Below, in pieces: positions 55,957 to 63,402 of a stretch of 64,000 nt of DNA. Every line of letters begins with the position of its first letter. Position 1 is the first letter of the stretch. Below the pieces are notes generated by a model. It was not told the DNA's origin, ran no database searches, and worked only from the letters and a program-made list of their open reading frames with translations. Made by a program: the position numbers and the translations under genes. Source of the stretch: Candidatus Contendobacter odensis Run_B_J11 (GTDB lineage: Bacteria; Pseudomonadota; Gammaproteobacteria; Competibacterales; Competibacteraceae); NCBI RefSeq assembly GCF_000531125.1, contig NZ_CBTK010000028.1, positions 1-64,000 on the forward strand, read 5' to 3'.

Positions 55957-58470
55957 ATGAGAGGAAAGCGGCGTAATCAACCACAAAAGAGCAAGCGACC
56001 GCAATGCAACGAGGGATCATCGCACCCCACGCTGCGTCCGCTGTGGTGGGGCTACGCGACCGGCCTGACGATGTTCATGCTGCTGGTGGGCGGAAGCATA
56101 GAGTACATTCCCACCCATTATCCAGTGACATTGCGACAGTTGGCGCAACGCGGCCTTGAATGGACACAGATGAATCCGCCTTGGCTGGTGGCGGCGCTGA
56201 AGCCGGGGCCACGTTATCGCGATCATCTCTTGGATGGACAAGTGCGCGCAGCCCACCCGCGAATTGTGTTGCCCGAACTGGCCGAAGGGTCAGGTGAGGG
56301 CATACCAGCGGTTCTGGCAATTCGCGAGGCGGGTTATCGCCAGCGTGGTTTGAATCCGCCTGGTGCGGCTTGCAGTGGCGGTGATATGCCCGCACTGGCG
56401 GCCTGCTGGGTCAGCACCGGCGATCCGAAGTCCGCGCAACGATTATTAACGGTGCTGCGGCAATTTGCGCCGACAGTTTCATCGACGACGAGCGGCGATC
56501 AAAGCGGCGCTTGTTGGGAAGCTGCGCTGGCCTATGATCTGCTGCATCGCTACTCAGGGTTGACTAATGAGGATCGGCAGCGCATCGAGATCGGTCTGGA
56601 AAGTGTGCTGGGTAAAACGCTGGAACAACTGGATGATGACAGCCCATCGCTGTGGCACGGGCGCAGCACTCTAGCCGCTGACGCCTGGTTATGTGCCGTT
56701 GTGCTTGATCCGACCGATGCGGCGCGGGAACAACTGGTCGCCCGGGCGCAAGGCCATTTTCTTGAAACGATCAAAGCGCTCGAACTCACCGAAGGCTGGC
56801 CGGAAGGTTACAACTACTGGATCAATAGCCGGGCGTTCCTGATCGCGCTGGCCGGATCGGCCTACCTGAACGGGCTGGAGCGCGGTGTCGAGGGCGACCG
56901 GGTGCGCCGCGCCTTGCGTCGAGTCGGCTACTGGACGCTGTACGCCACCCGCCCGGATCACCGGATCGAAGCGTTAGGCGATGAAGGTCCCCGGGTGGAT
57001 TTGAAGGATGAAACTCGGCGGGTGATCGATCTGATCGCTCAGGTGACTCACGATCCGGTGCTGGCCGCCTACTCGGCCTTTCTAGGTCAGTTACACGGCG
57101 CGGAGAGCTACTACCGCGATTATCGCTGGGGCTTTCGCCTGTTCAACGATCCGAGCTTGGCACCAGTGCCGGGAGCCGGTATCGCTGGCTTGTTCAGCGG
57201 CCTTCCCAGCGCCGAACTATTCGGGCGCAACGCCCTGAATCTGGCCTACATCCGTTCCGGTTGGACTCCCGATGCGACGTTTATCAGCTTCCGGGCCGGC
57301 GACGCTTTTACCCATCATGGTCATTATGACGCCGGCCATTTCAGCCTGTTCAAGGGTGCGCCGCTGGCGATCAACAGTGGCGCCTATGGCGGATTTTTCA
57401 GTCCCAACCGGCTTAATTACGCAATTCGCAGCATCGCCAAAAATACCCTGCTGATTTTGCGACCCGGCGAGAAGGTGCAGCCTAACCGCTTTTTCGCCGA
57501 CAACGTTGCGGATGGCGGCCAGCGAGTCGTGCTGCCTACCGGTAGCGCTATTCGTGATGTTCAGCACTGGCTGGATAACCGGGACAAAGGCTTGCATCTG
57601 GAAGGCGGGCGTTTGGAGCGCTTTGAGCATCGCGAAGGCGATTACACCTATATTGCTGCCGATTTGGCGGCGGCTTACAACACTCCAGCCCATGATGAAG
57701 GCGGCTGGGGAGGCAAGGTCGAACAGGTCGAGCGGCAACTGCTGTATCTACCGGGCGAGGATCGCCTGCTGGTCCGCGACCGGGTACGGGCGGTCAAGGC
57801 CGACTTCGTTAAAAAATGGCTGCTGCATACCGTCGAACAACCCCAAGTTGAAGGGATACGGGTACTCAAGGGTGATCGTGGCAACGGGATTCTGGAAAGC
57901 AATAGCGATATGGCGTTGGTGCAAAACGGGCGTGGCTGGCTGACTGTGCAGCGCATCTTGCCCCAAGACGCGGTTATCCGTCTGGTCGGTGGCCGGGATT
58001 ATCAGTACTACGTGGAAGCCGATGGCGATGATACGCAACTGGACGGGGTGAATTTCAATCAGGGCGCCAGTACCCAGCCGTGGTTCGATATTGGAATGTG
58101 GCGATTGGAAATTCAGCCGGGCGCGCTTCGGCCAGAGGATGCGTTTCTGATGGTGCTGACTCCGGCGCTGGGTGCGCCGCGCCGGGCCAGGGCCGCGCCC
58201 TTGTCATTGGAAGGCCGATCTGGAAGCGGAGTGTTGACCGAGGCATCCGCTGCCGTGTTTCTGGATAAGCCGGCCGGCGGTGAGTTGCGGTTGACGTTGC
58301 CAGCGGCGATCCAAACGATCCGAGTGATTGGATTACCGCCGCTGGCCCGCGTGGAACTACGGTCGGAGAGCGGGGCAACGCCGCCCATTGAACAGACTGC
58401 GAGTAGCGGCGGGGTGGCGGTATTCAGTTCGTCAACGCGGCAGGGACGGCTGGTTCTGCGCTGGCCGTAG
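55957..58470 (+). CDS. Membrane-anchored heparinase II/III-like polysaccharide lyase
   Basis: 837 residues. A cytoplasmic basic tail and one membrane helix (about residues 33-50) precede a large periplasmic part. An alpha/alpha-toroid-like helical domain (about 130-400) is followed by the heparinase II/III C-terminal beta domain with HHGHYDAGHFSLFKGAPLAINSG (452-474). The signature includes the His/Tyr region used in catalysis by lyases of this family. The target polymer is unknown; the neighbours suggest an acidic surface polysaccharide made or remodelled by this locus. Its 3' end overlaps the convergent fusion gene by 47 nt. Confidence 0.8.
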   Translation: MRGKRRNQPQKSKRPQCNEGSSHPTLRPLWWGYATGLTMFMLLVGGSIEYIPTHYPVTLRQLAQRGLEWTQMNPPWLVAALKPGPRYRDHLLDGQVRAAHPRIVLPELAEGSGEGIPAVLAIREAGYRQRGLNPPGAACSGGDMPALAACWVSTGDPKSAQRLLTVLRQFAPTVSSTTSGDQSGACWEAALAYDLLHRYSGLTNEDRQRIEIGLESVLGKTLEQLDDDSPSLWHGRSTLAADAWLCAVVLDPTDAAREQLVARAQGHFLETIKALELTEGWPEGYNYWINSRAFLIALAGSAYLNGLERGVEGDRVRRALRRVGYWTLYATRPDHRIEALGDEGPRVDLKDETRRVIDLIAQVTHDPVLAAYSAFLGQLHGAESYYRDYRWGFRLFNDPSLAPVPGAGIAGLFSGLPSAELFGRNALNLAYIRSGWTPDATFISFRAGDAFTHHGHYDAGHFSLFKGAPLAINSGAYGGFFSPNRLNYAIRSIAKNTLLILRPGEKVQPNRFFADNVADGGQRVVLPTGSAIRDVQHWLDNRDKGLHLEGGRLERFEHREGDYTYIAADLAAAYNTPAHDEGGWGGKVEQVERQLLYLPGEDRLLVRDRVRAVKADFVKKWLLHTVEQPQVEGIRVLKGDRGNGILESNSDMALVQNGRGWLTVQRILPQDAVIRLVGGRDYQYYVEADGDDTQLDGVNFNQGASTQPWFDIGMWRLEIQPGALRPEDAFLMVLTPALGAPRRARAAPLSLEGRSGSGVLTEASAAVFLDKPAGGELRLTLPAAIQTIRVIGLPPLARVELRSESGATPPIEQTASSGGVAVFSSSTRQGRLVLRWP

Positions 58471-60532
58471 CGGGAATTTGTGCCACCCACTGGGTCTCCA
58501 GAAACGCCAGAATTCGCTGTTCCAGCCAATATTCGGCCTGCCACGGCCAGCGTCCGCTGACGAAACCGACATGGCCGCCGTTTTGGCTGAGTTCCAACTG
58601 AACGCTGGGCGCAAGTTCTCCGGTTTCCGGCACGGCTTCCGGGTACATGAACGGATCATCCAGCGCATGCAGGATGATCGTCGGCACGCGGATGTGCTTC
58701 AGGTAGGGCCGGCAACTGGCGCGGGTGTAGTAATCGTGGACGCCGGCATAACCGTGCAGGGGCGCAGTGATACGGTCGTCGAAGGCGTAGAAATCCTGGA
58801 TCGCCGCCAGCCCAGCCAGCGTCACCGGACCATCCGAACGCCAGTGAAACTTGTCGCGATAACTGCGTTTCAGTTCGCGTAGCAGGTGGAACTGATAAAG
58901 CCGTGAAAAGCCTTTGCCTAAGCGCCGGGCGGTTAGATCAAGCACGAACGGTACTGAAACCGCCGCCGCAGCACATACGGGCGTAGCGGCGCCTACTTCA
59001 CCCAGCCACTTGAGCAAGGCGTTACCGCCCAGCGAGTAGCCGATGATCGCGAGCGGTGTGGCCGGTTCCCGCTGCCGCAGCCAATCTACAATGTGGGCAA
59101 TATCGCGGGTGTCGCCGGCGCAATAGCCCCGCGCCAGCCGGTTGGGCTGGTTGCCGCAGCCGCGAAAATGCATGACTACACCGCGCCAGCCGTGCCCCGT
59201 GATCGCCGCCAGCAAGCCGAGAACGTAATGGGAAGTGCTGGATCCTTCCAGCCCATGCAGAATGAGTACGAGCGGTCCCTGTTCGCCGCCGGTCCAGTCC
59301 AGATCCAGGAAATCGCCATCGGGTAATTCCAGTCGTTCGCGGCGCAAGGGCAAGCGCGGTCTCCGCCGACACAGCGCCGGCCATAAGGTCTGGGCATGGG
59401 GGCTGGGCAACCACCAGGCTGGTTGAAAATCAGATGGAGAAGCTGATCCCGCATCTGGAACCGCAACCGCCTCCTCGGCGATCTCCGGGCCGAGCAGGAT
59501 GGCCAGGGGGCGGGTATGAGGGTTCGCGTCCAGAGCGATGACGGCAGCGGCGGTCAGGGGTACCGCGAGGAACATGCCCACGGTGCCGAACAGCCAACCC
59601 CAGAACAAGAGCGAAATAAAGATCGCCAGAGTGGAAACGCCGAGACCCTTGCCCATGATCCGCGGCTCGAGAACATTCCCGATTGCGGTATTGATCACGA
59701 GATAGCCGACTGCCACGAGCAGCGCCGTCTGTAGATCGATCTGCACCAGCGCGAGCAAGACCGGAGGGATCATCATCACGATGTTTCCGACCACGGGCAC
59801 GAAATTCAAAAAAAACGCCAGCACCACCCAGAGAATGGCGAAATCGATGCCGAAAAACCGCAACAGCAACCAAACGCAAAACGCAGTGCCGAGGCTGGTC
59901 AGGGTTTTGATCTGCATGTAGCGGTTAATGGTCTCCAGTAGCCGCTTCAGGCGTGCGTCGCCCACTTCGGTCAAATGAAAGGCTGCCCGCAATTTGGCGG
60001 GGATTGTAGGGGTCTCAAGCAGGATAAAGATGGTAGTGAGCAGGACCAGGAAACCCATCGCGAAGATGCTGCTGGCGTTGGACAGGAACAGTCTGACGCC
60101 GTGAGCCAGCTTATTTGGATCCAGCAGGTCGGGTATCGCCTCGCGGGAGCCACTGGCGCCCACGCCCTCCAACCAGCCGCCGAATTGGTCACTGAGCGTT
60201 ATGAACCGCTCTTGATAGGTCGGCAAGCTGTCCCTGAATCCTTCCACAGCCCCGGTGGTCACCAGCGCGAGCAGGCTGCCGACATCGAGCAGAATCAAGA
60301 TGATCACCATTAAGGCGGCCCACTTGGGGATTCCGCGCCTGCGCATCCAACGCAATATCGGGGTCACAACGATGGCAATGAACACCGCGAGCAGGATGGG
60401 TACAAGAATCGGCGCAGCGGACTCAAGGACGGTTACCACCAGGGCGAAGGCCCCGGCGACGAGCAAGGCGCGGGCCGGAGCGCTGAATGTGCGGTTGGAT
60501 GTCAAGGGTTTCTCTCCGTAACTAACTGACAT
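58424..60532 (-). CDS. Fusion of an AI-2E/PerM-family transporter and a YheT-type hydrolase
   Basis: A single 702-residue frame. Residues 1-350 match the AI-2E exporter/PerM family: about eight helices, PILVPILLAVFIAIVVTPILRWMRRRG, FFLNFVPVVGNIVMMIPP, LEPRIMGKGLGVSTLAIFISLLFWGWLFG, and the usual family end NPHTRPLAILLG. After a 20-residue linker, residues 368-700 match the YheT alpha/beta hydrolase family: WWLPSPHAQTLWPALCRRRP, LILHGLEGSSTSHY, and the nucleophile Ser500 in GYSLGGNALLKWL. Each half has normal family length. GGAGAG lies 6 nt before an in-frame TTG at 60505, which may be the true start. Confidence 0.85.
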   Translation of the reverse strand: MSVSYGEKPLTSNRTFSAPARALLVAGAFALVVTVLESAAPILVPILLAVFIAIVVTPILRWMRRRGIPKWAALMVIILILLDVGSLLALVTTGAVEGFRDSLPTYQERFITLSDQFGGWLEGVGASGSREAIPDLLDPNKLAHGVRLFLSNASSIFAMGFLVLLTTIFILLETPTIPAKLRAAFHLTEVGDARLKRLLETINRYMQIKTLTSLGTAFCVWLLLRFFGIDFAILWVVLAFFLNFVPVVGNIVMMIPPVLLALVQIDLQTALLVAVGYLVINTAIGNVLEPRIMGKGLGVSTLAIFISLLFWGWLFGTVGMFLAVPLTAAAVIALDANPHTRPLAILLGPEIAEEAVAVPDAGSASPSDFQPAWWLPSPHAQTLWPALCRRRPRLPLRRERLELPDGDFLDLDWTGGEQGPLVLILHGLEGSSTSHYVLGLLAAITGHGWRGVVMHFRGCGNQPNRLARGYCAGDTRDIAHIVDWLRQREPATPLAIIGYSLGGNALLKWLGEVGAATPVCAAAAVSVPFVLDLTARRLGKGFSRLYQFHLLRELKRSYRDKFHWRSDGPVTLAGLAAIQDFYAFDDRITAPLHGYAGVHDYYTRASCRPYLKHIRVPTIILHALDDPFMYPEAVPETGELAPSVQLELSQNGGHVGFVSGRWPWQAEYWLEQRILAFLETQWVAQIPATASAEPAVPAALTN
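58494..58680 (-). repeat. Intact copy of the segment duplicated at 55783-55932
   Basis: Part of the hydrolase half of the fusion gene. It is the intact partner of the degenerate direct repeat at 55783-55932; together they flank the heparinase-like gene. Confidence 0.7.
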
Positions 60533-60612
60533 ATAAAATTTTCCTGTTTTAGTTGTGAAATTCACCGTAGCACACGCTTTCAGCCCGTCAACTTATCACG
60601 GGTTCCGATTCA

Positions 60613-61065
60613 TTAAATGCGCATGGACAATGATTGGAACACGTCTTCGGTCATGCCCTGCAACATGCTCAGGGCGTCCCAATCGTCCCAGGATTCCAGA
60701 ATGCGACCATTCTCAATCCGGTGAAAGCTCATACCGGTCACGGACATCGTCTCCCCGCTGGGGGCAATCCCCATGAACTCACCCCGGTGCGTACCGTAGG
60801 CAATCCAGCGGGTGGCGATTTTGTTGCCCTCGGCAATTTGATCCTGGATTTCAAAGCGGGTGTCGGGGAAAGAGCAGTGGTACATCGCGATCAACTGCTT
60901 GAACGCTTCAGTGCCGTGAACCGCATCCGGCAAAGTGGCAATGTGACCGACATAATCCGGTGCGAGGATTTCGTCCGCGACGGCCAGATTGCCCTGACTC
61001 CAGATGGCCTCGAAATTGCGCCGGACCAAGGCTTTGTTGGTGTCCAACGTGCTGTTCTCTGACAT
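60613..61065 (-). CDS. SnoaL-like ester cyclase family protein
   Basis: 150-residue soluble protein of the SnoaL/ester cyclase superfamily. Typical segments are ALVRRNFEAIWSQGNLAVADEILAPDYVGH, FPDTRFEIQDQIAEGNKIATRW, GTHRGEFMGIAPSG and FHRIENGRILESWDDWD. A good AAGGAGAG ribosome binding site precedes the ATG at 61065. The actual substrate cannot be told; proteins of this fold act on many small molecules or none. It is divergent from the acetyl-CoA hydrolase gene, sharing a 159-bp intergenic region. Confidence 0.8.
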   Translation of the reverse strand: MSENSTLDTNKALVRRNFEAIWSQGNLAVADEILAPDYVGHIATLPDAVHGTEAFKQLIAMYHCSFPDTRFEIQDQIAEGNKIATRWIAYGTHRGEFMGIAPSGETMSVTGMSFHRIENGRILESWDDWDALSMLQGMTEDVFQSLSMRI

Positions 61066-61224
61066 TGACGGCTCTCCTTCAGGATGAGGTTCTGCGTGGT
61101 GCGGTGATCAAGTGTGCGAGTTAGTGTAATCCGTTCCCTACAGGCTCGCCACGGAACCGAACCGGGGAGAACTGCTACAATTTGGTCACCCGCACCATCA
61201 TCCACCGACCGGAGAGATCGGATC

Positions 61225-63402
61225 ATGCCGCAACCAAGCCCATCGTATTTTCAGGATGTCGAACGCTGCGTTGAGGAAATTATCGCCAGAGTCGGCCAGC
61301 AGATCGTACTCGGCATTCCGCTGGGGATTGGCAAACCGAATCCATTAGTGAATGCGCTCTACCGCCGGGCGAAGGTCGATCCTTCTCTGCATCTTAGGAT
61401 TCTTACTGCGATCACTGTTGAGACCCCCAAGGGTTCCAGCGATCTGGAGCGGCGGTTTCTGGAACCGTTCGTAGCGCGGGTGTTCGGCAATTACCCGGAT
61501 CTGGAATACGCGGTTGACCTGCGTACCGGCCGGGTGCCCTCCAATGTCGAAGTTGGCGAGTTTTTCTTCAAGCCGGGTGGCTTTATGAACGTGCCGATGC
61601 AGCAGCAGAATTACATCAGCACCAACTACACTCATGCTGCTCGAGATCTGATGGACAACGGCATCAACGTGCTGGCGCAACTGGTCGCCGAGCGTGAAGT
61701 GGATGGCGAACGCTGGTTCAGCCTGGGGAGCAATCCCGATGTGACCCTGGATTTGTTGCCGATGGTCGAAGCGGCTCGCCGCCAAGGCCGGACGATGGTG
61801 ACGATTGCCGAGGTCAATCATGAAATGCCGTTTATGTACCACGACGCCATGATTCGCCCCTCCGCATTCGATCTGGTACTCGATCATCCTGGCTACGATT
61901 TCCGGCTGTTCGGCCCGCCCAATATGGCGGTGGATCATGCGGATTACCTGCTGGGCTTGCAGGCCAGCGCCCTGATTCGCGACGGTGGCACCTTGCAGAT
62001 CGGCATCGGCTGTCTGGGCGATGCCATCGTTTATTTCTGCCAGTTACGACAGCAGCAAAACGCGCTTTACCAACGGATGCTGACCGATCTGCATGTGTTG
62101 GAACGCTACGGCGATCTGATCCAGCGCATCGGCGGCGTTGAGCCGTTCGAGCAGGGGCTGTATGGCGCCAGCGAGATGTTTGTCAATGGTTTCCTCTATC
62201 TCTATCGGGATGGCATTCTCAAGCGCCGGGTTTACGACAGCATCCCGCTTCAGCGCCTGCTGAATGAGGGGGCAATAACGGAAGCGGTTGATGAACCGAC
62301 CTTACGGGTGTTGCTGGAACGCGGTGTGATTCCAACCCAACTGACCGCGAAGGATTTCGAGTTTCTACGCCGCTTCGGGGTTTTGAATGATCGGGTTCGC
62401 TACCAGGACGGTCAGTTGCTCATTGGCGAAACGACGCGGGTTTCCGCCGATCTGGATCAACCGGAAAGCTGGGCGGCGATTATCACCCACGGACTGGGCC
62501 AGCGGCTCCAGGGCGGGATCGTGATGCATGGCGGTTTCTTCATGGGACCGGGCAGCTTCTACCAGGCGCTACGCACCATGCCCGAAGCAGAAAGCCGGCA
62601 GATTTGCATGACCAGCGTGAAGCGGGTGAATCACCTTTACGGCAACGAAGAACTGGCGGTTTTGCAGCGGCGCGATGCCCGCTTTATCAACACCACGATC
62701 ATGGTCACGCTGTTGGGTGCGGCGGTGTCCGATGGCCTGGACAACGGCCAGGTGATCAGCGGCGTAGGCGGTCAGTACAACTTTGTGTCCATGGCCCACG
62801 AACTGCCGGGCGCCCGTTCCATTCTGATGCTGCGTAGCACCCGGGAGAGCGGACTGACCTCCACCTCCAATATCGTCTGGAACTACGGCCACATCACCAT
62901 CCCACGCCATTTGCGCGACATCGTGATTACGGAATACGGGATCGCGGATTTGCGGGGCCGGCCTGACAAAGAAGTGATCACCGCCTTGCTCAATGTTGCC
63001 GATTCGCGTTTTCAGCCGGAGTTGCTGGAGAAAGCCAAACGGGCCGGCAAAGTTCCCCAGGATTACCAAATCCCGCCGCAATACCGTCAAAACACCCCGG
63101 GCCGGATTCAGGCACAGTTGGCCTCCTACAAGAAGACGGGGTTATGCCCGGATTTTCCACTGGGCACCGACTTTACCGAGGAAGAAATCATCCTGGGGCG
63201 GGTACTAAAGGGACTCAAGGTGCGGTTAGCGACCAAGGGGGATTTAATGAAGACTATTGTTCGAGCGATGACGGTCGGTGCAACCCCCGACGCAGCCAAA
63301 CCTTATTTGGCCCGCCTTAAACTCGATCAACCGAGTGGACAGAAGGAGAAGATGATTCAGAAACTCATCGTTTCCGAATTGATTGCTGGCGGTCATGTCT
63401 GA
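61225..63402 (+). CDS. Acetyl-CoA hydrolase/transferase family protein
   Basis: 725-residue protein of the acetyl-CoA hydrolase/transferase family (CoA transfer between acetate, succinate, butyrate or similar acids). Seen: GIPLGIGKPNPLVNALYRRA near the N-terminus, LQIGIGCLGDAIVYF, GLYGASEMFVNGF with a candidate catalytic Glu, GGQYNFVSMAHELPGARSILMLRSTR and VITEYGIADLRGRPDKEVITALLNVAD. The extra internal and C-terminal regions make it longer than short family members of about 430-510 residues. The ATG at 61225 follows GGAGAG; an upstream reading from 61114 is rejected. The natural acid substrate is unknown. Confidence 0.85.
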   Translation: MPQPSPSYFQDVERCVEEIIARVGQQIVLGIPLGIGKPNPLVNALYRRAKVDPSLHLRILTAITVETPKGSSDLERRFLEPFVARVFGNYPDLEYAVDLRTGRVPSNVEVGEFFFKPGGFMNVPMQQQNYISTNYTHAARDLMDNGINVLAQLVAEREVDGERWFSLGSNPDVTLDLLPMVEAARRQGRTMVTIAEVNHEMPFMYHDAMIRPSAFDLVLDHPGYDFRLFGPPNMAVDHADYLLGLQASALIRDGGTLQIGIGCLGDAIVYFCQLRQQQNALYQRMLTDLHVLERYGDLIQRIGGVEPFEQGLYGASEMFVNGFLYLYRDGILKRRVYDSIPLQRLLNEGAITEAVDEPTLRVLLERGVIPTQLTAKDFEFLRRFGVLNDRVRYQDGQLLIGETTRVSADLDQPESWAAIITHGLGQRLQGGIVMHGGFFMGPGSFYQALRTMPEAESRQICMTSVKRVNHLYGNEELAVLQRRDARFINTTIMVTLLGAAVSDGLDNGQVISGVGGQYNFVSMAHELPGARSILMLRSTRESGLTSTSNIVWNYGHITIPRHLRDIVITEYGIADLRGRPDKEVITALLNVADSRFQPELLEKAKRAGKVPQDYQIPPQYRQNTPGRIQAQLASYKKTGLCPDFPLGTDFTEEEIILGRVLKGLKVRLATKGDLMKTIVRAMTVGATPDAAKPYLARLKLDQPSGQKEKMIQKLIVSELIAGGHV

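What the first reader, a model, noticed from the sequence alone, without database searches (positions are those of the whole stretch)
58424..60532. Continuous fusion of a PerM/AI-2E-family transporter with a YheT hydrolase
Both halves are full length with intact hallmark residues, joined by a 20-residue linker and no stop codon. I know of no characterised protein with this arrangement. It would tether an alpha/beta hydrolase (esterase or lipase-like) to the cytoplasmic side of a membrane transporter, hinting that the two families act on the same hydrophobic or acylated molecule.
Basis: partly seen in the sequence, partly recalled or inferred. Interest (0 to 1): 0.65.

Follow-up and report, generated by a model that had tools for sequence, protein, structure and literature searches.

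The report
One-off transporter–hydrolase gene fusion
In this bacterium a membrane-transporter gene was moved next to an unrelated hydrolase gene and the two now read as one protein; relatives keep them as separate, unlinked genes, so it looks like a genome accident in one lineage and not a conserved two-part machine.

Summary
One frame (window 60532..58424, minus strand, 702 aa) carries a full-length TqsA-like AI-2E transporter (residues 25-336) and a full-length YheT hydrolase (368-680), with no stop and an intact Ser-Asp-His set.

It is not an established architecture. In eight family genomes YheT follows a SnoaL-like gene with no transporter between. In other relatives the transporter is a separate gene with its own stop codon; in one it sits between a BrkB/YihY gene and an Mrp (MnhE/F/G) operon. 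Here a block of about 1.18 kb (60612..59435), a decayed REP/BIME repeat plus the transporter without its last ~11 codons, lies between SnoaL and YheT and replaces the YheT start codon. The old site (contig C27) has BrkB and MnhE but no transporter. The likeliest history is a relocation that made an in-frame fusion. The 20-residue 'linker' is the transporter's own variable tail.

No second instance appeared in two overlapping draws of 369 and 398 genomes, nor in the 59 nearest relatives. The genes do not co-occur beyond chance in the family. A shared substrate is unsupported, and which side of the membrane the hydrolase faces is open.

The parts
58424..60532 (-). fused ORF, 702 aa: AI-2E (TqsA-like) transporter + YheT hydrolase
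59435..60532 (-). transporter half with its native variable tail (residues 1-366)
   Evidence: PF01594 at residues 25-336; 85-89% identical to stand-alone transporters of G013, G007, G029, G004; tail PDAGSASP shared with G013
58427..59434 (-). YheT alpha/beta-hydrolase half (residues 367-702); S500, D625/D626, H654
   Evidence: NF008218 321.3 bits; 86.5% identical to stand-alone YheT of G006; residues located; hydrolase fold in model
59432..59437 (-). fusion joint (CCA|TCT), YheT start codon lost
   Evidence: comparison with G013 tail and G006 YheT start
59435..60612 (-). inserted block of about 1.18 kb between SnoaL stop and YheT codon ~5; absent from 8 relatives
60542..60602 (-). decayed REP/BIME-type repeat in the leader of the inserted block, one of a dispersed family in this genome
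60613..61065 (-). SnoaL-like gene (name from reading the sequence, no family search run), ancestral upstream neighbour of YheT

Best explanation
A transporter gene of the TqsA/AI-2E family, formerly beside BrkB and an Mrp operon, was relocated within this lineage together with a REP-bearing leader into the gap between a SnoaL-like gene and yheT. The insertion cut off the transporter's last ~11 codons and the first few codons of yheT, and happened to join them in frame. The gene is probably translated as one 702-aa membrane protein in which each half keeps its ancestral activity (export or antiport; esterase-like hydrolysis) with no demonstrated coupling. Shown: the fusion in the assembly, the separate arrangements in relatives, the inserted block, the missing copy at the old site, and no sign of relaxed selection in pairwise comparison. 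Inferred: that the same DNA moved, that the fused protein is made, and that both halves work.
For: Eight family genomes (G001, G002, G005, G006, G012, G019, G022, G025) have SnoaL followed by YheT with no transporter; synteny with G006 runs on both sides of the inserted block. Both insertion borders can be placed to within a few bases. Stand-alone transporters end with their own stop after the same tail in G013, G007, G029 and G004. In the own genome, C27 has BrkB and MnhE but no transporter between them; the BrkB C-terminus is altered and followed by a REP pair. No other copy of this transporter was found in the genome. dN/dS is 0.19-0.23 for the transporter half and 0.17 for the YheT half against nearest relatives, like values among unfused homologues. 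No in-frame ATG or GTG lies at the old YheT start, so full-length YheT needs the fusion. No fused homologue was found.
Against: It is a single genome in 319 contigs with no reads to check. C27 is a 5.4-kb contig. Synonymous distances of transporter (0.28-0.35), BrkB (0.37-0.46) and MnhE (0.48-0.71) to the same relatives differ, so a separate origin of the transporter is not excluded. The nearest YheT-bearing relative, G006, shows no hit to this transporter or BrkB. No fused relative exists, so selection after the fusion cannot be measured.
Confidence: 0.75

Rival explanations
1. Assembly chimera: the transporter block was wrongly placed between SnoaL and YheT, or a base was missed at the joint.
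For: Draft of 319 contigs; REP-type repeats, which can confuse assemblers, lie at the left border.
Against: Two independent false joins would be needed, both landing exactly at a gene border, one of them in frame. The old site also lacks the transporter, so C27 would have to be misjoined too. The joint has no homopolymer.
Confidence: 0.08
2. Selected functional fusion: transporter and hydrolase handle the same acylated or hydrophobic molecule, and tethering couples them.
For: Both halves are intact and show constraint like unfused homologues; the frame is open.
Against: No second instance; genes never neighbours in the loci examined; no co-occurrence; origin explained by insertion.
Confidence: 0.08
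3. The fused frame is a partly functional by-product: the protein misfolds, is cleaved, or one half is dispensable and has only just begun to decay.
For: The native transporter ATG has become TTG; three of the four other family genomes with this transporter lack YheT, so YheT may be dispensable.
Against: No stop or frameshift in 702 codons; dN/dS like unfused homologues; an upstream ATG preceded by AGGA is present in the new leader.
Confidence: 0.2
4. The transporter block came from another bacterium by horizontal transfer and the old copy was lost separately; the fusion itself is as described.
For: Synonymous distance to G013 (0.28) is lower than that of BrkB (0.37); patchy distribution in the family.
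Against: The missing copy at the BrkB-MnhE site in the same genome is explained more simply by relocation; the distances are of the same order.
Confidence: 0.15

Closest known systems
E. coli TqsA (YdgG), AI-2E family, PDB 7nb6
   Same: Transporter half aligns over nearly its whole length (query 22-348, chain 13-339; E 1.6e-59)
   Different: TqsA stands alone; the NCBIfam PRK12287 score of 249.7 is below its 318 cut-off, so substrate identity is not implied
Halobacillus andaensis UPF0118, Na+(Li+)/H+ antiporter of the AI-2E family (PMC7221264, PMC5379678)
   Same: Same named family; Mrp (MnhE) antiporter genes beside the ancestral locus suggest an ion-homeostasis setting
   Different: Its five signature motifs were not tested here; it is unfused; its C-terminus was mapped to the periplasm
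E. coli YheT (PRK10985), alpha/beta hydrolase
   Same: Equivalog model above cut-off, residues 368-680
   Different: Start codon and first few residues replaced by the transporter; normally a separate gene
GTAG-type REP/BIME repeats (PMC3733652)
   Same: GTAG head, palindrome and inverted pairs in the own-genome family
   Different: The copy at the insertion border is decayed; no part in the move is shown

Membership tests
AI-2E transporter family (PF01594) | full-length match to the family profile | tested here: met
   178.4 bits vs 34.3 cut-off, profile 4-325 of 327
PRK12287 (AI-2E subfamily model) | score above the curated cut-off | tested here: not met
   249.7 bits vs 318
UPF0118 Na+/H+ Antiporter Group | five conserved motifs A-E | not tested
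   motif sequences not compared; paper read for topology only
YheT (PRK10985) | equivalog score above cut-off | tested here: met
   321.3 bits vs 267
YheT / alpha-beta hydrolase | nucleophile elbow GxSxG and Asp/His of the triad | tested here: met
   S500 in GYSLGG, D625/D626, H654; geometry not checked
YheT / alpha-beta hydrolase | hydrolase activity | not testable with these tools
   needs an assay
GTAG REP/BIME repeats | GTAG head plus palindrome, dispersed copies in inverted pairs | tested here: inconclusive
   met by the family in the genome; the window copy itself is degenerate and did not fold better than shuffles

The most novel reading that the evidence does not exclude
The fusion has been kept because tethering a YheT hydrolase to a TqsA-like transporter couples export or antiport to hydrolysis of a membrane-derived acyl compound, giving the first functional link between two poorly understood families.
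Probability: 0.08. Interest if true: 0.5.

Novelty: new variant of a known kind. Interest (0 to 1): 0.25.

Why it matters
It is a well-resolved snapshot of how a gene fusion can arise in one step: a donor site without the gene, intact acceptor sites in relatives, and both borders placed. It also warns against reading a shared pathway from one fused gene, since here neither gene neighbourhood nor co-occurrence supports a link. If the protein is made, it is a natural test of how well AI-2E transporters tolerate a large C-terminal domain.

Tried and rejected
Rfam found nothing in 58000-62000. The leader was first taken for a sigma-70 promoter; the promoter scan found none and the genome search showed a dispersed repeat. 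A 21-row alignment misplaced the YheT rows and was dropped. The structure model from 6 rows was good for the hydrolase and poor for the transporter (mean pLDDT 55.5), so it says nothing on domain packing or topology. The TqsA structure paper tried by DOI was not held. The long open frame around YheT in G010 has an Arg/Asp/His-rich upstream part that looks like an antisense reading, and was not taken as a second fusion (not tested further).

Full report
What is there. The frame 58424..60532 on the minus strand is open for 702 codons. Residues 25-336 match the AI-2E transporter family and 368-680 the YheT hydrolase model above its curated cut-off. The transporter half aligns with nearly all of solved TqsA, and the hydrolase half with stand-alone YheT genes from the conserved FxPAWW start onward. 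S500, D625/D626 and H654 are in place. A six-row AlphaFold model gave a fairly confident hydrolase fold but a poor transporter, and Foldseek matched esterases and, weakly, TqsA.

Arrangements in relatives. In eight family genomes YheT follows a SnoaL-like gene with no transporter between them. G006 is the nearest: its YheT ATG starts 9 nt after the SnoaL stop, and it is syntenic with the window on both sides of the transporter. The transporter is a separate gene in G013, G007, G029 and G004, each with its own stop after the tail. In G004 its neighbours are BrkB/YihY upstream and MnhE, MnhF and MnhG-like genes downstream; in G029 an MnhE-like gene follows. These gene names come from reading the sequences, not from a family search. 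In Chromatiaceae the neighbours vary.

The insertion. The window departs from G006 directly after the SnoaL stop codon and returns to it at the YheT codon for D368, so the extra block is 60612..59435, about 1.18 kb. Its last bases match the transporter tail of G013 (GCGGGATCAGCTTCTCCA against GCGGGCTCAGCTTCTCCA), where the gene runs on for 11 more codons. The YheT start codon is gone and no in-frame ATG or GTG replaces it nearby, so full-length YheT can be made only as part of the fusion. At the 5' end the native ATG is a TTG (60505), and an upstream ATG (60532) preceded by AGGA lies in the new leader; which is used is unknown.

The old site. Contig C27 of the same genome has BrkB (89% to that of G013) and then MnhE, with no transporter between; the end of BrkB is altered and followed by palindromes with GTAG-like heads. 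The leader in the window (60602..60542) belongs to another repeat family with about 60 partial or full hits in the genome, several of them perfect inverted pairs headed GTAG, the form described for REP/BIME elements (PMC3733652). Repeats at both places are suggestive, but such repeats are common between genes, and no mechanism is shown.

Is it a conserved architecture? No fused relative was seen among 59 nearest genomes, 369 genomes drawn from the class, 398 from the phylum (the sets overlap), or 25 loci from a pattern scan of the 84,980-species collection (which finds close relatives only). In the 37 family genomes two carry both genes where 2.3 are expected (Fisher p = 1; presence scored, some genomes incomplete). 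Distant fusions outside these samples are not excluded.

Selection. Against nearest relatives dN/dS is 0.19-0.23 for the transporter and 0.17 for YheT, in the range of unfused pairs. This covers time before and after the fusion, so it shows no decay but cannot prove use since the fusion.

Function. The best reading is that each half keeps its own role. Characterised AI-2E members include an AI-2 exporter and a Na+(Li+)/H+ antiporter (PMC7221264, PMC5379678); the Mrp neighbours of the ancestral locus lean towards ion homeostasis, by inference. YheT is an esterase-like hydrolase whose substrate I could not find in the held papers. Which side of the membrane the hydrolase faces is open: the C-terminus of a distant member was mapped to the periplasm by PhoA fusion, while the positive charge at 61-71 and 174-210 is compatible with either parity of the last helices.

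Verdict. Real in the assembly, best explained by relocation, apparently unique to this genome, with no evidence of a joint function.

Noticed in passing
L046:3983-7882: In a Thiodictyon MAG a transporter of the same clade is continuous with a P-type cation ATPase (1299 aa). A run of seven C near L046:5110 could be an assembly indel.
   Followed up: partly
window 60542-60602 and G000 loci L092-L119: A dispersed GTAG-headed REP/BIME-type family (GTAGCACGGGCTTCCAGCCCGTG in inverted pairs) with about 60 hits in this genome.
   Followed up: partly
L085:4000-4350: BrkB gene with altered C-terminus and a different REP-like pair at the site where a relative carries the transporter.
   Followed up: yes
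G004, G007, G013 (loci L063, L061, L060): Three near-complete family genomes have the transporter but no detectable YheT.
   Followed up: no
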